Origin: Burkholderia contaminans
Lineage (GTDB): Bacteria; Pseudomonadota; Gammaproteobacteria; Burkholderiales; Burkholderiaceae
Assembly (NCBI RefSeq): GCF_029633825.1
Contig: NZ_CP090641.1
Location: 2,418,001-2,482,000, forward strand
DNA length: 64,000 nucleotides
Direction of reading: 5' to 3'
The translations under genes and the position numbers were made by a program. The notes beneath the pieces were generated by a model. The model did no database searches, was not told the DNA's origin, and saw only the letters and a list, made by a program, of their open reading frames with translations. Below are positions 27,707-41,256 of the stretch, piece after piece. Positions within the stretch are counted from its first letter, which is position 1, and each line of letters begins with the position of its first letter.

Positions 27707-27811
27707 TCAGACCGTGACGACGACCTTCCCGACTTGCGCGCCGGCTTCCATGTAGCGATGCGCTTGCGCGATGACGTCGAATGCTTCGCCAGTCGCATCA
27801 AGCATCTTCAT
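27707..27811 (-). pseudogene. C-terminal remnant of a zinc-type alcohol dehydrogenase/quinone oxidoreductase
   Basis: The minus strand reads 34 codons then a stop. The last 26 residues, EAFDVIAQAHRYMEAGAQVGKVVVTV in parts, match the extreme C-terminus of medium-chain dehydrogenases (family form xIAxAHRYLExGxQVGKVVVTV). The catalytic and Rossmann domains are gone. The similarity ends where the AT-rich leader of the NRPS-like gene begins, so the remnant probably marks the junction of an insertion or deletion. It is too short to be functional. Confidence 0.75.
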
Positions 27812-27918
27812 CGTTTCGCCTTTCGTTTCAGCCGCCATCCATCTCGTGCGCAGAATTGCTTTTTATTCATTCAAATCTATATTGGGATCTGTTCGTTTCG
27901 ATGCGAGGAATCAAAACG

Positions 27919-30909
27919 ATGACGACTCAATCGAATGTGCTCGAGAAGTTTCAGATGTGCGCGGCCGTACGAGGCGACACGTCGGCCGTGGTGTCGGAAC
28001 AAGCGTGCCTGAGTTACCGCGAGCTCGATCGTCGGAGCGACGCGATTGCCGGTGCATTGCGAGGCCGGGGCATCGGGCGCGGCAGCCTGGTGCCGATCGA
28101 GGCCGCGCGTAACGTCGACTTCATCGTCGGTATCCTCGGCATCCTGAAGGCCGGCGCGACGTATGTCCCGATCGACGAACGTTATCCCGACGCCCGCAAG
28201 GATCTCATCCTGCAGCAATGCGATGCGTCGCTGGTGTTGACGGCCCGCGCGACACAGCGGGACGCGGCCGTTCCGTTCATCAGCGTGGCGGACCTGTCGG
28301 TGCGGCGGCCCGACCGGGACGACGCGCATGCGACGCAACCCGCCGATGCGCCGGAGGGCGCGATCTACGTGATCTTCACGTCCGGCTCCACGGGCGCGCC
28401 GAAAGGCGTCATCGTCGAACATGCCGCCGTGGCCACACTCGTCGGCTGGCACAACGCGCGTTTTTCGATGAATGCCGAAAGCCGCGCGACGCTGATGGCG
28501 GGCCTCGGCTTCGATGTATCGCAGTGGGAAATCTGGTCGGCCCTCTGCGCGGGGGCGACGCTGTTCCTGCCGGACGACGAAACGCGTTTCGACGCCGATG
28601 CGCTCGTCGGCTTCTTCACCCGTCACCGGATCACGCATGCGTACGTGCCGACCGTGATGGTGGCCGACGTGGTGGGTGTCGGCCAGCCGACGGACCTGAA
28701 GCTCGAGTATCTGTTCACGGCCGGCGAAAAGCTCGATCCGGTCGATACCGATCGAGTCAGTTACACGGTGGTCGATTACTACGGGCCGACCGAAGCGACG
28801 ATCTTCGCGACGTATCACGTCGTTCCGAGCGCGACGCTTGGCCGTCCGGCATCGATCGGACACCCGGTCGGCAATACCGAGATCCTGATCCTGAACGATG
28901 CGCAGGAAGCGGTGGGGGAGAACGACGTCGGCGAGATCTGCATCGGCGGGCCAGGCTTGGCCCGCGGCTACCTGAACAACCCTGCGTTGACTCGCGAGAA
29001 ATTCCGTCCGCATCCGCAACGGCCGGACCGGATCATCTATCGCACGGGCGATCTCGGGCGCCGGCTGAACGACGGCTCGATCCAGTTTCTCGGCCGTCTG
29101 GACGATCAGGTCAAGATTCGCGGCAACCTGGTCGAGCTGAGCGAAATCCAGGCGGTGCTCGCCAGAGCGGACGTGGTACGCAAGGCGCTGGTGCTGGCGT
29201 TGCCCCGCATCGCCGGAACCGGCAAGGAACTGGTTGCGTTCGTCGTGCCGGCTGATCCCGCCGTGCCGCCCGAGCAGGTCGTCGACGCGCTGAAGGCAAG
29301 CGTGCGGCAATACCTGCCGGATTACATGTGGCCTGTCGGTCACGTGCTGCTCGACGACATCCCCGTGACGGCGAACGGCAAGACCGACCGGGCCGCGCTG
29401 CAGCAGCGTTACCACGACGAACTGCGCAACCGGACCGAGCAGGAGTCGTATACCGCCGTCGAGCGGATCTTGGCGGATGCTTTCGTCGCGCTGACCGGCC
29501 ATGCGTCGTTTCGCAAGACCGACAGTTTCTTCGACATCGGCGGCAATTCGCTGCTGACGGCGAAGCTTGCCAGGGCGCTGTCGGATGCCGCGGGCACGAA
29601 GATGCTGATCCGTGACGTCTACGAGCACTTGTCGGTGGAAGGGCTCGCAGGCGAGATCGAGCGGCGTGTCGCGGCGGCGCTCGAGATCGACCGCGAGCCC
29701 GTTTATGCGCTCTCGAACGATATCCGCGTGCCGGCGCAGGCGGATTTCAGTGGCGCCTTCGACATCGCGCTGCTGGCGCGCCCGCGCACGATTCTGCTGA
29801 CGGGCGCCACGGGGTTCGTCGGCGTTCATTTGCTGGCCGAACTGCTCGCGACGACGTCGGCGATCGTGCATTGCCTGGTGCGTGCGGAAGATGCCGCCGC
29901 GGGACGTGCGCGGATCGACGAAAAGCTGCGTGCCTACGACGTGAACCTCGGGCCGGACGAGCGATCCCGCATCCGCGTGTGGGCGGGTGATATCACGCAG
30001 GCGCGCTTCGGGCTGGACGAGCGGCACTACGCGGCGCTGGCGGACGAAATCGACATCGTTTACCACTCGGCTGGCGCGGTCAATTTCATCCAGCCGTATT
30101 CGTTCATGAAGAAGATCAACGTGGACGGCCTGACCCAGATCCTCGCTTTCGCCGGGTGCAGGCGCACCAAGGCGCTGATCCTGCTGTCGACGATCTCGGT
30201 GTACAGCTGGGGGCATCGCTTCACCGGCAAGGCCATGATGACCGAAGCGGACGACATCGATCAGAACCTGCCGGCGGTGCTCGAGGACATCGGCTATACG
30301 CGCAGCAAATGGGTGATGGAAAAAATGGCCGACCTGGCGGCGCAGCACGGCCTGCCGCTGATGACGTTCCGTCTCGGCTACGCGACGTTTCACGGCGAGA
30401 CCGGCGTCAGCGCCGATTATCAATGGTGGGGGCGGCTCGTGAAGACGTGCATGGCGCTCGGTACCGTGCCCGACCTGGAGGACCTGCGCGAAGGGCTGAC
30501 GAGCGTGGATTACATGACGAAAGCGCTTGCGTGGATTTCGCGCAATCCGGCGGCGCTGGGGCGGAAATTCAACCTGATCAATTCGCCCGAGGCCAACCTG
30601 ACGCTTCGGGAGTTCTTCTCGAGGCTGGAACGCTACTTCGGCTTGCGGTTCCGGGTCGTGCCGTTCCGCGAATGGCGCGATGCGTGGAAGACCGATATCG
30701 ACGCACCGCTCTATCCGCTATTGAGCCTGTTCGACGACAACATTCGCGACGGGATGTCCACGGCCGAGCTGTATCAGAACAATTACGTGTGGGACTGCCG
30801 CAACGTGATCGAATTTCTCGAAGGCAGCGGCATCGCGCAGCCGGCATTTTCCCGCGAGCAACTGGCGCGGTACATGGAGCGGTCGATCGGCCATCGGGTT
30901 GCGGGGTGA
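27919..30909 (+). CDS. Stand-alone A-T-R enzyme (NRPS-like carboxylic acid/amino acid reductase)
   Basis: 996 residues, three domains. Adenylation (about 15-500): FTSGSTGAPKG at 153-163, YYGPTEATIF at 287-296, YRTGDLG, GRLDDQVKIRGNLVEL, TANGKTDRAAL. Asp199 (FDVSQW) matches the Asp that holds an alpha-amino group, so an amino acid is the likely substrate. Thiolation: DSFFDIGGNSLL with phosphopantetheine Ser544. Thioester reductase (from about 620): TGATGFVG at 628-635, catalytic Tyr793 and Lys797. There is no condensation domain. Known relatives (Lys2, PvfC, HamD) release aldehydes that can dimerise to pyrazines. The start at 27919 follows GCGAGGAA. No tailoring genes adjoin it, and a PPTase must act from elsewhere. 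Confidence 0.93.
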   Translation: MTTQSNVLEKFQMCAAVRGDTSAVVSEQACLSYRELDRRSDAIAGALRGRGIGRGSLVPIEAARNVDFIVGILGILKAGATYVPIDERYPDARKDLILQQCDASLVLTARATQRDAAVPFISVADLSVRRPDRDDAHATQPADAPEGAIYVIFTSGSTGAPKGVIVEHAAVATLVGWHNARFSMNAESRATLMAGLGFDVSQWEIWSALCAGATLFLPDDETRFDADALVGFFTRHRITHAYVPTVMVADVVGVGQPTDLKLEYLFTAGEKLDPVDTDRVSYTVVDYYGPTEATIFATYHVVPSATLGRPASIGHPVGNTEILILNDAQEAVGENDVGEICIGGPGLARGYLNNPALTREKFRPHPQRPDRIIYRTGDLGRRLNDGSIQFLGRLDDQVKIRGNLVELSEIQAVLARADVVRKALVLALPRIAGTGKELVAFVVPADPAVPPEQVVDALKASVRQYLPDYMWPVGHVLLDDIPVTANGKTDRAALQQRYHDELRNRTEQESYTAVERILADAFVALTGHASFRKTDSFFDIGGNSLLTAKLARALSDAAGTKMLIRDVYEHLSVEGLAGEIERRVAAALEIDREPVYALSNDIRVPAQADFSGAFDIALLARPRTILLTGATGFVGVHLLAELLATTSAIVHCLVRAEDAAAGRARIDEKLRAYDVNLGPDERSRIRVWAGDITQARFGLDERHYAALADEIDIVYHSAGAVNFIQPYSFMKKINVDGLTQILAFAGCRRTKALILLSTISVYSWGHRFTGKAMMTEADDIDQNLPAVLEDIGYTRSKWVMEKMADLAAQHGLPLMTFRLGYATFHGETGVSADYQWWGRLVKTCMALGTVPDLEDLREGLTSVDYMTKALAWISRNPAALGRKFNLINSPEANLTLREFFSRLERYFGLRFRVVPFREWRDAWKTDIDAPLYPLLSLFDDNIRDGMSTAELYQNNYVWDCRNVIEFLEGSGIAQPAFSREQLARYMERSIGHRVAG

Positions 30910-34527: not shown

Positions 34528-35739
34528 TCAGGCTTCGCTGAACCGCGCCAGCAGCGCCGCGAACCGCGTGTCGTCCGGGAATGCCTTCACTTCATAGCGC
34601 ACCGGGCGATGCACGGTGGCCGTCATCAGGTCGCCGCACGTGTGCAGCAGCTCGGCCAGCGGCACGTAAGCGGACTGCCCCGTCGAGCCGCGATGGAGCG
34701 CGACGATATCCGTCTCGGGCAGCAGGGAAGGCACGCCGTCGCTCCACACGCCGACGCTGAACAGGCTGCCGTCCTGGCGCTTGTACACCGAGTAGGTCGC
34801 CACGAAGATGTCGGTGCCGTCGCGCTCATGCACGTCGTTGAGCAGCATCCGCTGATCCTGGTAGTCGCCCGCGAGCTCGCCGATGCGCAGCGCATGCAGC
34901 TTCGCTTCGAGCCCTGCCGGCACGAAGCGCTGCCAGGCGGCGCCGTCCCAGCGCAGCATCAGCGGAGGCAGCGGGCGCGGCTGCGCCTGCGCCTGTTCGG
35001 CGAGGTCGACCATGGCGGCGAGCCCGGTCGGATTGCGGTCGCCGGTGAGCAGCAGCACCGCGCGGTTCGGCGCCATCACGACCGGTGCGCCGGCGATCGG
35101 CTGGCGGTGAAGCAGGTCGGTCAGCAGCAGCCGCGCCGCGTCGTAGGAGTCGTCGAATTGCGACAGGAACACGCCGTTCGGCAGCGCGGCCCACGGCTTC
35201 GACGATTCGGCCCGCAGGTTGTCGATCGCGATGTCGCAGGCTTCGTCGAACGAGACGCCCCATTGGTCGAGCGTCGCGGTCGGCAGGCGCGCGATGTTGA
35301 ACTCGCCGTCGTACGCGATGCCGATTTCGATGTTCTCGCAGAGCGGCCGGAACGCCAGCGCCGTGATACCGGGCTGCCCGGCCAGTTGCAGCGTGGCCAC
35401 GCAGCGCTCGGTCGCGCTGCGGATCACGGGCCGCAGCTTCGCGCGCGCGGCGGCGAAATCCGTCGGGATCTCGTGCTGCATCATCGCGTTCGCCTGCCGC
35501 TTCAGCACGGTGTCCCGCTCGGACGGTTTCGCGGCCGCGTAGTCGCGGAACAGGTTGTGCAGGTTGATGATGTTCGACGGCGCATCCGACTGGACGAGGC
35601 AGCCTTTCTCGTCCTCGTGCCGCCAGGTGCGGGTGTCGCCCGATGCGCGCAGCGTGGCGATCAGGCGTTCCGCGAAGGCCTGCGGGGTCGGCGGTTTGCC
35701 GAAACGGTCGCGCAGGCGCGTGACGAGATTGGCAAGCAT
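34528..35739 (-). CDS. DUF1444-family protein
   Basis: 403 residues, cytoplasmic, no signal peptide or membrane helix. The N-terminal region RLRDRFGKPPTPQAFAERLIATLRASG and the later IGIAYDGEFNIARL match DUF1444 proteins such as YtpQ, whose function is not established. The C-terminal third has TDIFVATYSVYKRQDGSLFSVGVWSDGVPSLLPETD. The ATG at 35739 was chosen because reading further upstream gives only low-complexity sequence. It is divergent from the DUF3348/DUF802 operon. Confidence 0.82.
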   Translation of the reverse strand: MLANLVTRLRDRFGKPPTPQAFAERLIATLRASGDTRTWRHEDEKGCLVQSDAPSNIINLHNLFRDYAAAKPSERDTVLKRQANAMMQHEIPTDFAAARAKLRPVIRSATERCVATLQLAGQPGITALAFRPLCENIEIGIAYDGEFNIARLPTATLDQWGVSFDEACDIAIDNLRAESSKPWAALPNGVFLSQFDDSYDAARLLLTDLLHRQPIAGAPVVMAPNRAVLLLTGDRNPTGLAAMVDLAEQAQAQPRPLPPLMLRWDGAAWQRFVPAGLEAKLHALRIGELAGDYQDQRMLLNDVHERDGTDIFVATYSVYKRQDGSLFSVGVWSDGVPSLLPETDIVALHRGSTGQSAYVPLAELLHTCGDLMTATVHRPVRYEVKAFPDDTRFAALLARFSEA

Positions 35740-36153
35740 CGTGGGCGGTCGGGCCGGGCCCGTCTGTTGTCGTTGTGGGTCGGTGGCGCCTGCTCTCAGG
35801 GCGCCGCCCGCGGCCGGCACACGTGGCTCGGCGGGTGTTGCGATGGTAGCGCAACGGGGCCGGTATCGTCGGACGATATTCGCAACCGGTGGGTGATTTG
35901 GCGGTGGGTGGCAGGAGCTGGGACAGGATCTGGAGCCAGGGCCAGGGCCAGGGGCAGGGGCAGGGGCAGGGGCAAGGGCAAGGGCAACGGCGCGGCAGGA
36001 CCGTCCCCGCAGCAGCCCCCGTTCGCCCGCCAAGCCTTGCGCGGCGGGCGTTCGCGTGTGTCGCACGCCGCGCCGAACGGCGCCGCTTCCCCGATTCTGG
36101 CGGCCCACCTCCCGGCGACGTGTAAACTGCTGCCTTTTTTGACGGTTTGCAGC
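35740..36153. other. Divergent intergenic region with G-run repeat
   Basis: 414 bases with no credible gene. It separates the DUF1444 gene from the DUF3348-DUF802-MotB-like operon. It holds the G-run repeat at 35938-35985 and, near the operon, TGTAAACTGCTGCC with a TTTTTT run. Promoters of both transcripts must lie here. Confidence 0.55.
35938..35985 (+). repeat. Hexanucleotide G-run repeat, G-quadruplex-prone
   Basis: Four GGGG runs at 35951-35954, 35957-35960, 35963-35966 and 35969-35972 are separated by CA, with further GGG runs at 35945, 35976 and 35982. The plus strand fits the G-quadruplex pattern very well; the repeat unit is CAGGGG, degrading to CAAGGG. Confidence 0.9.
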
Positions 36154-36927
36154 ATGGTGCAAGCACCTCCGCGCCCGGCACTGAGCGGCCCCGCGCTCGT
36201 CCGGCTGCTCGCGCGCCTGGCCGATGCCGACATCGCGGAATCCCGGCAGACGCTGTCCGACCGGCTGAGCCAGTGGCTCGGCTGGACCGACGCGATCACG
36301 CTGTCGTCCGCGCTGAACGCGAGCCCGCCCGGCGTCGCGGCCGGCGTGCGCGGCTACGACGCGGAGCGCGACTGCGCGCGCGTGCGCCACGAGCTCGCGC
36401 AGGCGATCACGGCCGCCAATCGGCCCCGTGCGCGGCGCCGGCCCGGCGATCCGCCGCCGCCGGCCGCCGACACGGCCGATTTCGCGGACTTCCGGCAGCG
36501 TTATCTGTCCCTGCAGCAGGACATGGAAACGGCGATCGGCCAGTTACGCGGCCGCCTGCGGGTCGCGGTTGCCGCCCGCTCGTCCGGGATGGCGCGGCTC
36601 GCGACGCTCGACGCCATCATGGAGCGCGTGCTCGGCGCGCGCGAGCGCAGCCTGCTGTCGTCGATCCCCGCGCTGCTCGGCACGCGTTTCGGGCGGCTGC
36701 GCGACGCGGAGCGGCAGGCGCTGGCCGATGCCGAATCCGCGGCTGCAGCCACGGCCGATCCGGCCGATGACGGCGCGGTGGCGGCCGATGGCACGGCCGT
36801 CGCGGCGATCGTGCCCGGCGCATGGCTCGATACGTTTCGCGACGAGATGCAGAGCATCCTGCTTGCCGAACTCGAAGTCCGGTTTCAAACGGTAGACGGG
36901 CTGCTCGCGGCCCTTCGCACCAGCTAA
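36154..36927 (+). CDS. DUF3348-family protein
   Basis: 257 residues, cytoplasmic, helical. The N-terminal LVRLLARLADADIAESRQTLSDRLSQWLGWTDAITLSSAL is the recognisable DUF3348 core; FADFRQRYLSLQQDMETAIGQLRGRLR follows and the C-terminus ends DEMQSILLAELEVRFQTVDGLLAAL. It is first in a four-gene operon whose next gene starts 10 bp downstream. The family has no known function. Its constant association with a MotA-like DUF802 protein suggests a soluble accessory of that membrane complex. Confidence 0.88.
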   Translation: MVQAPPRPALSGPALVRLLARLADADIAESRQTLSDRLSQWLGWTDAITLSSALNASPPGVAAGVRGYDAERDCARVRHELAQAITAANRPRARRRPGDPPPPAADTADFADFRQRYLSLQQDMETAIGQLRGRLRVAVAARSSGMARLATLDAIMERVLGARERSLLSSIPALLGTRFGRLRDAERQALADAESAAAATADPADDGAVAADGTAVAAIVPGAWLDTFRDEMQSILLAELEVRFQTVDGLLAALRTS

Positions 36928-36937
36928 TCAACACGCT

Positions 36938-39900
36938 ATGTCCAGAATTCGCCTTGATCTCGTTGTCTTCGTCGCCGGTCTGCTCGCTGTGGGCTGGATC
37001 GGCGTCGGCTATGTCGCGTCGAACCCGCTGGCGGCGGCCGTCACGCTGCTGATCGCCGCGTGCTACGTCGCCGGCGCATGGGAGCTGCTGCGCTACCGGC
37101 AGGCCACCGCCACGCTGTCGCGCGCGGTCGCCGGCCTGACCGAGCCGCCCGCGAAGCTCGACACGTGGCTCGATACGCTGCACCCGGGCCTGCGCGGCGC
37201 CGTGCGCGCGCGGGTCGAAGGCGCGCGCGTCGCGCTGCCGGGCCCGTCGCTCACGCCTTACCTCGTCGGCTTGCTCGTGCTGCTCGGCATGCTCGGCACG
37301 CTGCTCGGGATGGTCGTCACGCTGAAGGGCACCGGCGCTGCGCTCGAAAGCGCGACCGATCTCGATGCGATCCGCGCATCGCTGATCGCGCCGGTGAAGG
37401 GCCTCGGGTTCGCATTCGGCACGTCGATCGCCGGTGTCGCGACGTCCGCGATGCTCGGGCTGCTGTCCGCGCTCGTGCGCCGCGAGCGGATCGACGCGGC
37501 CCAGCAGCTCGACGCGAAGATCGCGACGACGCTGCGCGTGCATTCGTCCGCGCACCAGCGCGACGAATCGTTCCGGCTGCTGCAGCGCCAGGCCGACGTG
37601 ATGCCGTCGCTGGTCGACCGGCTGCAGACGATGATGACGACGCTCGAAGCGCGCAGCGTCGCGCTGCACGATCGCCAGATCGAAAGCCAGCAGGCATTTT
37701 TCGACCGGACCGAGCGCGCCTATGCGGGCCTCGCGTCGAATGTCGGCGACGCGCTGAAGGAAAGCGCCGCCGAAAGCGCGCGCGTAGCCGGTGCCGCGCT
37801 GCAGCCGGTCGTCGCCGCGACGATGACCGGGCTCGCGCAGGAGATGGCCGCGCTGCGCGACACCGTGACGGGTGCCGTGCAGCGTCAGCTCGACGGGCTG
37901 ACGGACGGCTTCGAGAAGACCACCGGCAACGTGACGGCCGTCTGGAACCGCGCGCTCTACGAACAGCGCCGCGCGGGCGATGCCGTCGCGCAGCAGCTGC
38001 AGACGACGCTCGGCCAGTTCACCGACACGTTCTCGCAGCGTTCGGCGGACCTGCTCGACGGCGTGGCGACGCGTCTCGAATCGACTGAAAGCCGCCTGTC
38101 GGACGCATGGCGCGATGCGCTGTCGCGCCAGGAGCAGGTCGGCGAGACGCTGGCGGGCCAGCATGCGCGCGCGCTGGGCGAGGCCGCCGCGGCGTTCGAA
38201 CGCCATTCCGGCGCGACGCTTGCCGCGATGCGCGAGTCGCACGCGGGGCTGCAGGCCGACCTGGCGGCGCGCGACGAACAGCGCGTCGCCGCGTGGAACG
38301 ATTCGCTGGCCGCGATGGCCGCAAAGCTCGGCGACGAATGGCAGCGCGCCGGCGTGCACAGCGCAGCCCGTCAGCAGGAAATCTGCGACGCACTGGCGCA
38401 AACGACGCGCGATCTCACGGCGCAGGCTGCGACGTTCGAACAACGTTCGAACGCGTTGCTGTCGACGATCCGCGATTCGCATGCCGGCCTGCAGACGCAA
38501 CTGGCTGCGCGTGACGAGGAACGCCTCACTGCGTGGAACGACTCGCTGGCCGCGATGGCCGCGAAGCTCGGCGACGAATGGCAGCGTGCAGGTGTACACA
38601 GTGCGGGCCGTCAGCAGGAAATCTGCGACGCACTGGCGCAAACGACGCGCGATCTCACGGCACAGGCGTCGACGTTCGAACAACGCTCGAATGAATTGCT
38701 GTCGACGATCCGCGATTCGCACACGGGCTTGCAGACGCAACTGGCTGCACGCGACGAAGAACGCCTCACTGCATGGAACGACTCGCTGGCCGCGATGGCC
38801 GCGAAGCTCAACGACGAATGGCAGCGCGCAGGTGTACATAGTGCGGGCCGTCAGCAGGAAATCTGCGACGCACTGGCGCAAACGACGCGCGACCTGACCG
38901 CGCAGGCATCGACGTTCGAACAACGCTCGAATGAGTTGCTGTCGACGATCCGCGATTCGCACACGGGCCTGCAGACGCAGCTTGCCGCACGCGACGAAGA
39001 ACGCCTCACTGCGTGGAACGACTCGCTGGCTGCAATGGCCGCGAAGCTCGGCGACGAATGGCAGCGCGCGGGCGTGCACAGTGCGGGCCGTCAGCAGGAA
39101 ATCTGCGACGCACTGGCACAAACGACGCGCGATCTCGCGGCACAGGCGTCGACGTTCGAACAACGCTCGAATGAATTGCTGTCGACGATCCGCGATTCGC
39201 ATGCCGGCCTGCAGTCGCAACTGGCCGCGCGCGACGAAGAACGCCTCGCTGCATGGAACGACTCGCTCGCCGCGATGGCCGCCGCGCTGCGCGACGAATG
39301 GGCGCAGACGAGCGCGCAGGCCGCGACGCGCCAGCAGGACATCTGCGACACGCTGGCCCGCACCGCGAACGACATCACCGCGCAGGCACAGGTGCACGCG
39401 AGCGACACGATCAACGAGATCGCGCGCCTCGTGCAGGCTGCATCGGAGGCGCCGAAGGCCGCGGCCGACGTCGTCGCCGAGCTGCGCCAGCGCCTGTCCG
39501 ACAGCCTGGTGCACGACACCGCGATGCTCGAGGAGCGCAGCCGCCTGCTCGCGACGCTCGAAACGCTGCTCGGCGCGGTCAACCACGCGTCGACCGAACA
39601 GCGCACCGCGATCGACGCGCTCGTCAGCACGTCGGCCGACCTGCTCGACCGCGTCGGCGCGCGCTTCAACGACACCGTCGATGCCGAAACACGCAAGCTC
39701 GACTCGGTGGCCGCGCAAGTCACGGCAGGCGCCGTCGAGGTCGCGAGCCTCGGCGACGCGTTCGGGATGGCCGTGCAGGTATTCGGCGAGTCGAACGACA
39801 AGCTGCTGACCCATCTGCAACGCATCGAGGCCGCGCTCGAGAAGTCGCTCGCGCGCAGCGACGAGCAGCTCGAGTACTACGTCGCGCAGGCGCGCGAGGT

Positions 39901-39985
39901 GATCGACCTGAGCATGATGTCGCAGAAGCAGATCGTCGAAGACCTGCAGCAGCTCGCCGGCCGGCGGGCGAGCGTCGGAGCGTAA
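36938..39985 (+). CDS. DUF802 / MotA-TolQ-ExbB-like membrane protein with long repeat tail
   Basis: 1015 residues. Four membrane helices lie at about 7-27, 30-50, 106-127 and 155-182. The last two, YLVGLLVLLGMLGTLLGMVVTLKGTG and LGFAFGTSIAGVATSAMLGLLSALV, match the proton-channel helices of MotA, TolQ, ExbB and ZorA. The remaining 830 residues are a cytoplasmic helical tail with four near-identical 80-residue repeats (about 448-768) and a C-terminal coiled coil. The MotB-like gene starts four bases later. Family logic predicts a pentamer around a MotB-like dimer, driven by ions, with the tail transmitting motion. A structural reading is inference; the channel motifs and repeats are direct. 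Confidence 0.9.
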   Translation: MSRIRLDLVVFVAGLLAVGWIGVGYVASNPLAAAVTLLIAACYVAGAWELLRYRQATATLSRAVAGLTEPPAKLDTWLDTLHPGLRGAVRARVEGARVALPGPSLTPYLVGLLVLLGMLGTLLGMVVTLKGTGAALESATDLDAIRASLIAPVKGLGFAFGTSIAGVATSAMLGLLSALVRRERIDAAQQLDAKIATTLRVHSSAHQRDESFRLLQRQADVMPSLVDRLQTMMTTLEARSVALHDRQIESQQAFFDRTERAYAGLASNVGDALKESAAESARVAGAALQPVVAATMTGLAQEMAALRDTVTGAVQRQLDGLTDGFEKTTGNVTAVWNRALYEQRRAGDAVAQQLQTTLGQFTDTFSQRSADLLDGVATRLESTESRLSDAWRDALSRQEQVGETLAGQHARALGEAAAAFERHSGATLAAMRESHAGLQADLAARDEQRVAAWNDSLAAMAAKLGDEWQRAGVHSAARQQEICDALAQTTRDLTAQAATFEQRSNALLSTIRDSHAGLQTQLAARDEERLTAWNDSLAAMAAKLGDEWQRAGVHSAGRQQEICDALAQTTRDLTAQASTFEQRSNELLSTIRDSHTGLQTQLAARDEERLTAWNDSLAAMAAKLNDEWQRAGVHSAGRQQEICDALAQTTRDLTAQASTFEQRSNELLSTIRDSHTGLQTQLAARDEERLTAWNDSLAAMAAKLGDEWQRAGVHSAGRQQEICDALAQTTRDLAAQASTFEQRSNELLSTIRDSHAGLQSQLAARDEERLAAWNDSLAAMAAALRDEWAQTSAQAATRQQDICDTLARTANDITAQAQVHASDTINEIARLVQAASEAPKAAADVVAELRQRLSDSLVHDTAMLEERSRLLATLETLLGAVNHASTEQRTAIDALVSTSADLLDRVGARFNDTVDAETRKLDSVAAQVTAGAVEVASLGDAFGMAVQVFGESNDKLLTHLQRIEAALEKSLARSDEQLEYYVAQAREVIDLSMMSQKQIVEDLQQLAGRRASVGA
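38281..39240 (+). repeat. Four tandem 240-bp repeats inside the DUF802 gene
   Basis: Four head-to-tail 240-bp units (38281, 38521, 38761, 39001) differ at only a few positions each; a diverged fifth half-unit follows from 39241 and a diverged quarter precedes 38281. Each unit encodes 80 residues with WNDSLAAMAAKLGDEWQ, RQQEICDALAQTTRDL and FEQRSNELLSTIRDSH. Near identity at silent sites indicates recent expansion or gene conversion. Confidence 0.95.
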
Positions 39986-39988
39986 CGC

Positions 39989-40633
39989 ATGCACGACGAA
40001 ATCGACGGCGACGCAACCTCCGCGCCGGTATGGCCCGCGTTCGCCGACCTGATGTCGGTGCTGCTCGGCGCGTTCGTGCTGATTCTCGTCGGCGTGATCG
40101 GCATGCAGCTTCAGCTCACGTCGAAGCTCGAGGAAGCCGTGCGTGCGCGCCAGCAGGAAGCGCAGCAGCGCAAGTCGCTCGAGCAGGCGCTCGCCGGGCC
40201 GCTTGCAGCCGGCCGCGTGACGCTCGTGAACGGGCGCATCGGCATCAGCGGCAACGTGCTGTTCGCGCTGAACTCCGACCAGTTGCAGCCCGCGGGCCGC
40301 GACCTGCTGAAGACGCTGGCCGCGCCGTTGGGCACCTACCTGAAGACGCGTGACGAGATCCTGATGATCAGCGGCTTCGCCGACGACCAGCAGGTGCACG
40401 CGGGCAACCGCCTGTTCGCGGACAACTGGGAACTGTCGGCCAAGCGTGCGTTGACGGTCACGCGTGCGCTGATCGACGCCGGCGTGCCGGCGTCGTCGGT
40501 GTTCGCGGCGGCGTTCGGCTCGGAGCAGCCGGTCAGCTCGAACGCGGACGATGAAGGCCGCGCGAAGAACCGTCGCGTGGAGATCGCGCCGGTGCCGCGC
40601 AAGTCGGCTTCGAACGGAGGGAAGGCGAAGTGA
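39989..40633 (+). CDS. MotB/OmpA-like peptidoglycan-binding partner
   Basis: 214 residues. The N-terminal membrane helix VWPAFADLMSVLLGAFVLILVGVIGM carries Asp20 in FADLM, the position of the ion-binding Asp of MotB, TolR and ZorB. A short coiled linker (about 45-70) leads to an OmpA-like domain (GNVLFALNSDQLQPAGRDLL, ISGFADDQQ, NWELSAKRALTVTRALIDAGV, DDEGRAKNRRVEI), which binds peptidoglycan. Together with the DUF802 protein it makes a MotAB-type ion-driven unit. Its stop overlaps the DUF2894 GTG start. Confidence 0.92.
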   Translation: MHDEIDGDATSAPVWPAFADLMSVLLGAFVLILVGVIGMQLQLTSKLEEAVRARQQEAQQRKSLEQALAGPLAAGRVTLVNGRIGISGNVLFALNSDQLQPAGRDLLKTLAAPLGTYLKTRDEILMISGFADDQQVHAGNRLFADNWELSAKRALTVTRALIDAGVPASSVFAAAFGSEQPVSSNADDEGRAKNRRVEIAPVPRKSASNGGKAK

Positions 40634-41256
40634 CCGGCGAAGTGACCGGCGACGCGACGCACGTTCGCGCGACGCTCGACGCATGGCGCGAGCAGGGCGC
40701 CGACCGGCTCGATCCCGTGCGCTTTCACCGGATCGACGCACTCGAACGGCGCGCGGCCGCGCTCGAAGGCGAAGCGCGTGCGTTGCTCGACGCGCGGCTG
40801 GCGACGCTGATCGAAGGTTTTGCGGAAGTGGTGGCGTGCGCCGGTGAAACGGCAACCGCGAGCAGCGCGACAGGTGCGCCCGCGCGCGGCGCGCTGGCGG
40901 AACTCGTCGAGCGGCTCGCGCGCGATGTGCAGGCCGACCGGCGCGGGCTCGATCCCGAGCTGGTCGACTACTTCCGCACGATGTGGTCGAAGGTCCGCAC
41001 CGAACAGCAGTATCGCCAGTCGCTCGACCAGGTGCCGCGCAACGCGGGGCCGCTCAATTCGAACAGTCTCGTGCACCGGTCGCTCGCGACGATGCGCGAG
41101 TTGTCGCCGGCTTATCTGCAGCAGTTCCTGTCGTATGTCGACGCGCTCGCGTGGCTCGAGGATCTCGCCGGCGGCGGCGCGCAGCCCGAGAAGGAAGCGC
41201 CGCGGGCGAAGGCGGCCAAACCGGCGAAGAAGGCGACGCGCGCCAAGGCGCGGTAA
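40630..41256 (+). CDS. DUF2894-family protein
   Basis: 208 residues, cytoplasmic, starting at a GTG that overlaps the preceding stop (GTGA). The core is RATLDAWREQGADRLDPVRFHRIDALERRAAALEG, then DYFRTMWSKVRTEQQYRQSLDQVPRNAGPLNSNSLVHRSLATMRELSPAYLQQFLSYVDALAWLEDL in segments. The C-terminus is Lys/Ala-rich and basic, possibly nucleic-acid or membrane-surface binding. This family is known only from this gene cluster type and has no assigned function. Confidence 0.88.
   Translation: MTGEVTGDATHVRATLDAWREQGADRLDPVRFHRIDALERRAAALEGEARALLDARLATLIEGFAEVVACAGETATASSATGAPARGALAELVERLARDVQADRRGLDPELVDYFRTMWSKVRTEQQYRQSLDQVPRNAGPLNSNSLVHRSLATMRELSPAYLQQFLSYVDALAWLEDLAGGGAQPEKEAPRAKAAKPAKKATRAKAR

What the first reader, a model, noticed from the sequence alone, without database searches (positions are those of the whole stretch)
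36154..41256. MotAB-like motor operon with two unknown partners (DUF3348, DUF802, MotB/OmpA, DUF2894)
The DUF802 protein has MotA/TolQ/ExbB channel helices and an 830-residue cytoplasmic tail. The next gene carries the ion-site Asp (FADLM) plus a peptidoglycan-binding OmpA domain. This is the architecture of ZorA and ZorB in Zorya anti-phage defence, yet no ZorC, ZorD or ZorE is present; the flanking proteins are families of unknown function. The four genes are tightly coupled (10 bp, 3 bp, GTGA overlap). It may be an undescribed ion-driven machine for defence, envelope transport or signalling.
Basis: partly seen in the sequence, partly recalled or inferred. Interest (0 to 1): 0.87.

Follow-up and report, generated by a model that had tools for sequence, protein, structure and literature searches.

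The report
Zorya type III phage-defence motor operon
The four genes are a known anti-virus system of bacteria, Zorya type III, built around an ion-driven motor with a long rod; here it looks like a lasting, inherited part of the genome, and the rod seems to change length only in steps that keep its helix in register.

Summary
Four adjacent genes (DUF3348, a MotA-like protein with DUF802 repeats and a long tail, a MotB/OmpA-like protein, DUF2894) lie at 36154-41256. 'Undescribed' is wrong: all four match PADLOC's Zorya type III models (E 7.5e-83 or better) and are homologous to the Stenotrophomonas nitritireducens operon reported in 2021 to block phages in E. coli. ZorC, ZorD and ZorE are absent because type III lacks them by definition. 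Two results go beyond what I found in print. (1) In this genus the operon behaves like a core gene: DUF3348 is in 64 of 65 genomes, as is rpoB, against 28 of 65 for HsdR and 8 of 65 for CBASS; it tracks rpoB distances (rho 0.82-0.91), has few defence neighbours and had no match in the phage collection. (2) The ZorA shaft grows by tandem units of ten lengths (22-149 residues), each within 0.28 residue of whole helical turns at 3.636 residues per turn, between a conserved motor and a conserved tip. Best explanation: a wall-anchored, ion-driven motor working through ZorF and ZorG; the blocking step and its native main role are open.

The parts
36154..36927 (+). DUF3348 protein, 257 aa (ZorF in the text of the 2021 and 2025 papers; labelled ZorG3 in PADLOC-DB 2.0.0)
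   Evidence: Pfam PF11828 E 3.7e-86; PADLOC ZorG3 E 1.2e-95
36938..39985 (+). ZorA3, 1015 aa: MotA/TolQ-like motor (about 1-230), length-variable shaft, conserved C-terminal tip
   Evidence: PADLOC ZorA3 1583 bits; profile of residues 1-230 matches type I ZorA 8vvn_C E 5.1e-5; conservation profile
38226..39301 (+). 240-bp (80-aa) tandem repeat in the ZorA shaft, 4.5 copies, 89% match
   Evidence: TRF; ZorA lengths 855/935/1015 in relatives
39380..39982 (+). Conserved C-terminal tip of ZorA3 (about 200 aa), containing RSDEQLEYYVAQAREVIDLS
   Evidence: Conservation over 41 sequences: 0.93 for positions 651-675 of a 698-aa form, about as high as the channel helices; limits approximate
39989..40633 (+). 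ZorB3, 214 aa: one membrane helix with Asp20, periplasmic OmpA/MotB-type domain
   Evidence: PADLOC ZorB3 E 3.2e-114; OmpA E 2.1e-18; FxDLM in 154 of 155; best PDB match 3khn 'MotB protein, putative' E 4.3e-17
40630..41256 (+). DUF2894 protein, 208 aa (ZorG in the papers' text; labelled ZorF3 in PADLOC-DB), conserved C-terminal core and Lys/Arg-rich C-tail
   Evidence: Pfam PF11445 E 1.2e-54; PADLOC ZorF3 E 7.5e-83; basic tail in 147 of 151
36116..36153 (+). Conserved stretch just before the first ATG, possibly promoter and ribosome site
   Evidence: 33 of the last 38 bases before the ATG are at least 95% conserved in 48 genus loci; function not tested

Best explanation
The operon is a Zorya type III system. 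Five ZorA3 and two ZorB3 are inferred to form an inner-membrane ion-driven rotary motor; ZorB's Asp20 takes up the ion and its OmpA domain grips the peptidoglycan. Disturbance of the wall by phage entry is inferred to start ion flow and turn ZorA, whose five tails form a rod of about 70-120 nm (at 1.5 A per residue, recalled) reaching into the cytoplasm. The conserved tip is inferred to dock DUF3348 and DUF2894; DUF2894, with its basic C-tail, is the better candidate for touching nucleic acid. My family searches showed no nuclease or helicase domain in either, so the blocking step probably differs from types I and II and is unknown. Shown here: membership, the constant four-gene set, the conserved key Asp, core-like vertical inheritance in the genus, and a shaft whose repeat units fit whole helical turns. 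Shown in print for a homologue: phage protection in E. coli. Inferred: 5:2 assembly, rotation, docking at the tip, the nucleic-acid role, and that defence is the native role.
For: All four PADLOC type III models match. L120 is the contig NZ_LDJG01000021.1 that the 2021 paper names as the source of its tested operon; identities to the window are 44, 53, 69 and 37%. The four genes stand together in 155 of 159 loci, the other four being cut by contig ends. Ion-site motif in 154 of 155 ZorB. The only credible PDB match of the ZorA motor profile is type I ZorA, 8VVN. Tail, ion flow and PG binding are important for types I and II (PMC11890865, passages). Basic DUF2894 tail in 147 of 151. dN/dS medians 0.18-0.26.
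Against: In B. cenocepacia K56-2, where Zorya III is predicted, knock-down of none of the predicted defence systems changed fitness during Bcep176 infection (PMC12584637, passages); one phage only, and the authors list other reasons, such as the systems not acting on this phage. Core-like distribution (64 of 65) and lack of defence neighbours are unusual for defence. The one positive assay that I saw is heterologous expression in E. coli. No structure could be predicted: 19 requests met a full queue.
Confidence: 0.62

Rival explanations
1. The machine's native job is not, or not mainly, phage defence. It is a core housekeeping motor of many Burkholderiaceae and some Xanthomonadaceae, for instance reacting to cell-wall damage, and the phage block seen in E. 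coli is a side effect of expression in a foreign host.
For: 64 of 65 genus genomes, equal to rpoB, against 8 of 65 CBASS and 28 of 65 HsdR. Distances follow rpoB, rho 0.82-0.91 in 29 genomes. No match in 50,697 phage records, none confirmed in IMG/VR with one peptide pattern; on plasmid records only those of 366 kb or more (27 of 72,556). 2 of 110 neighbours match PADLOC. No effect of knock-down in K56-2 with one phage.
Against: The published phenotype that I saw is phage protection, and types I and II are defence systems. The family is sparse outside a few lineages (8 of 369 in the class; 98 of 247 in the family of G447), odd for housekeeping. Neighbours give no other function.
Confidence: 0.28
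2. It is an undescribed Tol/Exb-type envelope transport or force-transmission motor.
For: MotA/TolQ/ExbB-type channel signature in ZorA.
Against: ZorB carries an OmpA-type peptidoglycan-binding domain, which TolR and ExbD lack (recalled); the long cytoplasmic tail and soluble partners point into the cytoplasm; PADLOC type III models match far better than any other PADLOC model.
Confidence: 0.04
3. It is an accessory flagellar stator.
For: The MotB-like protein matches MotB/MotD models and MotB structures.
Against: Those MotB/MotD matches are below the NCBIfam cut-offs; the one model over its cut-off among those shown is PRK09040, named only 'hypothetical protein'. None of the 20 other window ORFs scanned with Pfam is a flagellar gene (not all window genes were scanned). 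The two partner families are foreign to stators (recalled).
Confidence: 0.02

Closest known systems
Zorya type III (PADLOC 2021; S. nitritireducens DSM 12575)
   Same: Same four families in the same order; homologous at 44/53/69/37% identity.
   Different: Window ZorA is 1015 aa against 798; its shaft repeats are 80-aa units, against a 102-aa unit in S. nitritireducens.
Zorya type I (8VVN, Shewanella ANA-3)
   Same: Related ZorA motor (E 5.1e-5 over profile positions 109-193); the short form of type III ZorA (698 aa, 26 of 156) is about as long as ANA-3 ZorA (696 aa).
   Different: No ZorC or ZorD found nearby; partners are DUF3348 and DUF2894, which show no credible PDB match.
Zorya type II (8VVI, S. 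kujiense)
   Same: ZorAB motor with cytoplasmic rod and PG-binding ZorB.
   Different: No ZorE nickase found nearby; the type II tail is shorter (residues 100-378).
MotAB, PomAB
   Same: Channel signature, membrane Asp, OmpA-type domain.
   Different: No long tail and no such soluble partners in stators (recalled).

Membership tests
Zorya type III | zorA and zorB genes flanked by DUF3348 and DUF2894 genes | tested here: met
   order seen
Zorya type III | Matches of all four proteins to PADLOC type III models | tested here: met
   E 1.2e-95, 0, 3.2e-114, 7.5e-83
Zorya type III | ZorB membrane Asp and PG-binding domain | tested here: met
   FxDLM in 154 of 155; OmpA E 2.1e-18. Binding itself not tested
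Zorya type III | Homology to the experimentally tested operon | tested here: met
   44/53/69/37% to L120
Zorya type III | Protection against phage | not testable with these tools
   Published for the homologue; no effect of knock-down in K56-2 with Bcep176
Zorya type III | ZorA5B2 assembly | not testable with these tools
   Known for types I and II; structure queue full
Zorya type I | ZorC and ZorD genes with ZorAB | tested here: not met
   No such PADLOC match among the four proteins, 8 further window proteins or the 3 window-locus neighbours in A6; not every window gene was scanned
Zorya type II | ZorE nickase gene with ZorAB | tested here: not met
   Same calls and limits: 12, 93, 101
Flagellar stator MotAB | MotB model over its cut-off | tested here: not met
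   For example NF005195 58.9 bits against 300, NF006548 48.9 against 277 (best 25 of 41 shown)

The most novel reading that the evidence does not exclude
Zorya type III is not a mobile immune system but a fixed, vertically inherited innate machine of Burkholderia and its relatives, probably guarding or repairing the envelope, with phage block as one output. Its ZorA rod is a reach-setting shaft: a conserved tip is held at a lineage-specific distance from the membrane by tandem units that must be whole helical turns (about 3.635 residues per turn), so that tip and motor keep their angular phase.
Probability: 0.25. Interest if true: 0.75.

Novelty: already known. Interest (0 to 1): 0.42.

Why it matters
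It settles the finding: this is a named, partly tested system. What is worth following is that type III differs from the usual picture of defence as patchy and mobile: in this genus it is as universal as rpoB (64 of 65 each). That makes a direct test possible of whether it is immunity or a core envelope machine. The shaft gives a second test: ten different unit lengths seen in nature predict which length changes should keep the machine working.

Tried and rejected
Structure prediction of DUF3348 (A2) and DUF2894 (A3) was asked for 19 times and each time met a full queue; no fold search could follow. DUF3348 and DUF2894 show no relation by profile comparison (probability 2%). PDB searches gave nothing for DUF3348 and only chance-level matches for DUF2894. 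The weak KfrA_N match of DUF2894 (E 2.6e-4, under cut-off) was not used. Type I Zorya as a patchiness control was inconclusive: ZorB1 and ZorA1, at strict E limits, rang in 0 of 65 but also in no control genome. A search of the phage collection for the ZorA tip found nothing. A first rank-correlation run read some rpoB genes on the wrong strand (rho 0.36-0.47, mean rpoB distance 0.275); it was replaced after two failed scripts. The idea that copy-number variants are only assembly collapse was rejected for part: 5 of the 13 short forms (935 or 855 aa) lie in assemblies of at most 4 contigs; the other 8 stay open to that doubt. A note of mine gives a unit of about 118 aa; the true unit is 80 aa. 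Another ties absence to small genomes; one search also lists misses of 5.4 and 6.4 Mb, and 58 misses are not listed.

Full report
WHAT IS THERE. The window is G000:C2:2418001-2482000 of a 9.44-Mb genome in 7 contigs. The best matches of its DUF3348 protein in the plasmid collection are Burkholderia records at 88, 84 and 81% identity, so the genus is very probably Burkholderia; the genome itself is unnamed.

WHAT IT IS. All four proteins match the PADLOC models of Zorya type III: DUF3348 E 1.2e-95, ZorA3 1583 bits, ZorB3 E 3.2e-114, DUF2894 E 7.5e-83. Type III was defined in 2021 by these flanking families, and an operon of S. nitritireducens DSM 12575 (NZ_LDJG01000021.1) significantly reduced plating of at least one tested phage in E. 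coli BL21-AI (PMC8565338, passages). That contig came back in my scan as L120; its four proteins are 44, 53, 69 and 37% identical to those of the window. The absence of ZorC, ZorD and ZorE is the definition of the type, not a puzzle. The papers' text calls DUF3348 ZorF and DUF2894 ZorG, whereas PADLOC-DB labels them the other way round.

KEY PARTS. The ZorB motif with Asp20, FxDLM, is present in 154 of 155 proteins (the exception, L040, is out of frame there) and invariant in the 21 of alignment A4; the OmpA domain is closest in the PDB to a putative MotB (3khn, E 4.3e-17). The profile of the first 230 residues of ZorA has one credible PDB match, 8vvn_C (E 5.1e-5), the type I ZorA of Shewanella ANA-3 (PMC11890865, passages). 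Conservation along 41 ZorA, mostly of the short form, is 0.94 in the channel helices, 0.50-0.63 over positions 326-475, 0.73-0.93 over 476-675 and 0.69 in the last 23; the peak, 0.93, is the stretch around RSDEQLAYYVAQAREVIDLS. So the protein reads as motor, variable shaft, conserved tip. The last 20 residues of DUF2894 carry a net charge of +4 or more in 147 of 151 proteins, against 0 of 154 for DUF3348 and 58 of 151 for ZorB (loci with cut or badly started genes, L074, L102, L112, L145, L164, were left out). Basic tails suggest nucleic-acid contact; that is inference.

ONE UNIT, TOGETHER. Of 159 loci examined (60 of the genus with the window's own, 19 of the family or class, 80 named) 155 hold all four genes in order; in the other four (L074, L165, L184, L186) the contig ends inside the operon. 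One of the 155, L040, has an out-of-frame zorB start.

CORE, NOT PATCHY. In the genus DUF3348 is found once in 64 of 65 genomes, the miss being an 82%-complete assembly and one match being partial. rpoB, as a yardstick for a core gene, is found in 64 of 65; CBASS (SMODS) in 8 of 65; type I restriction (HSDR_N) in 28 of 65. In the family 171 of 249 genomes and 11 of 25 genera have it; in the class 8 of 369 genomes; in the family of G447, whose DUF3348 is 80% identical to a Stenotrophomonas one, 98 of 247 genomes and 19 of 54 genera. So it is core in this genus and, by the listings, common in some others, but far from universal. At least one of three neighbouring genes of the window (Pyr_redox, FMN_red, ICMT) is kept beside it in 49 of 60 genus loci, own included. 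Protein distances follow rpoB DNA distances with rank correlation 0.894, 0.911, 0.818 and 0.848 over 29 genomes (largest of 1000 permutations 0.58); with rpoB protein 0.82-0.86 (largest 0.64). dN/dS medians are 0.24, 0.24, 0.18 and 0.26 over 60 close pairs per gene, the first 60 found; they share genomes and are not independent. No match in 50,697 phage records; one pattern-based scan of IMG/VR confirmed none; 27 of 72,556 plasmid records match, all 366 kb or longer, 7 of them called mobilizable. Of 110 proteins beside the operon, called by a crude coding-bias rule in 33 chosen loci (one gave none), 2 match a PADLOC model at 1e-10 (mad2) and no Pfam family occurs in more than 6. PMC11890865 calls the distribution of the subtypes 'typical of anti-phage systems' (passages); for type III in this genus these counts say otherwise. 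My searches for a published statement that type III is core or vertically inherited (listings, with passages of PMC12584637 and PMC9148166) showed none; subscription papers are mostly not held.

THE SHAFT. In the main clade of the genus (48 loci) ZorA is 1015 (35), 935 (9) or 855 aa (4), with nothing between: steps of exactly 80. On a tree of the operon without the tail these lengths change at least 13 times. Of 156 ZorA examined, 48 show no tandem unit (37 of them 695-701 aa) and 108 do. The fundamental units are 22, 33, 40, 51, 62, 69, 80, 87, 98 and 149 residues; five of these (22, 33, 40, 69, 149) rest on one protein each. I did not count multiples, the 102 of seven proteins (taken as twice 51) or a 55 beside 87 in one protein. 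All ten lie within 0.28 residue of whole turns at 3.636 residues per turn; the mean cosine is 0.96 at the best period, 3.635, and none of 20,000 random sets with free period reached it. Hydrophobic periodicity measured on 37 short-form tails peaks at 3.655-3.675 overall, 3.68 near the motor, 3.605-3.62 in residues 400-600 and 3.57 in 500-690. The match is therefore only rough: at 3.655 the mean cosine is 0.71 (p 0.0003) and at 3.667 it falls to 0.43 (p 0.023). Staying in register is expected of any continuous coiled coil, so this supports a rod rather than proving a special mechanism. [quoted passage not shown] type III looks different. A search for a published account of ZorA tail repeats (listing) showed none.

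HOW IT LIKELY WORKS. By homology to types I and II, where tail, ion flow and PG binding are important (PMC11890865, passages), wall disturbance would open a ZorA5B2 motor and turn a rod that engages soluble partners. In type III those are DUF3348 and DUF2894. No enzyme domain was recognised in them, so the blocking step is unknown. Against a purely defensive role: in B. cenocepacia K56-2, where Zorya III is predicted and its first one or two genes change on infection, knock-down of none of the predicted systems altered fitness with phage Bcep176 (PMC12584637, passages).

VERDICT. The core-like inheritance and the shaft whose units fit whole turns are the parts worth a specialist's time.

Noticed in passing
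L154:8001-12234: A contig titled Bacillus subtilis SK7B5 carries a complete Zorya III operon like those of Stenotrophomonas and its kin; the record is probably mislabelled or contaminated.
   Followed up: no
L040 (G010), start of zorB: The first part of ZorB is out of frame in this relative (gap of 44 bases; start does not match); broken gene or sequencing error, not decided.
   Followed up: no
window 34528-36390 (-): A 620-aa ORF with a DUF1444 match just under cut-off overlaps the start of DUF3348 on the other strand; its true start probably lies further in.
   Followed up: no
window 27781-30909 (+): AMP-binding, carrier and reductase (NAD_binding_4) domains in one 1042-aa protein, the build of a carboxylic acid reductase (recalled).
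   Followed up: no
G078, G113, G225, G270: DUF3348 is hit as two matches with weaker E-values in these family genomes; possibly broken or divided genes.
   Followed up: no
PADLOC-DB 2.0.0 against PMC8565338: The labels ZorF and ZorG are swapped between the database and the paper's text.
   Followed up: yes
L089, 1110-aa ZorA: This relative has an 80-aa unit that is itself two 40-aa halves (offsets 40, 80, 120, 160).
   Followed up: partly
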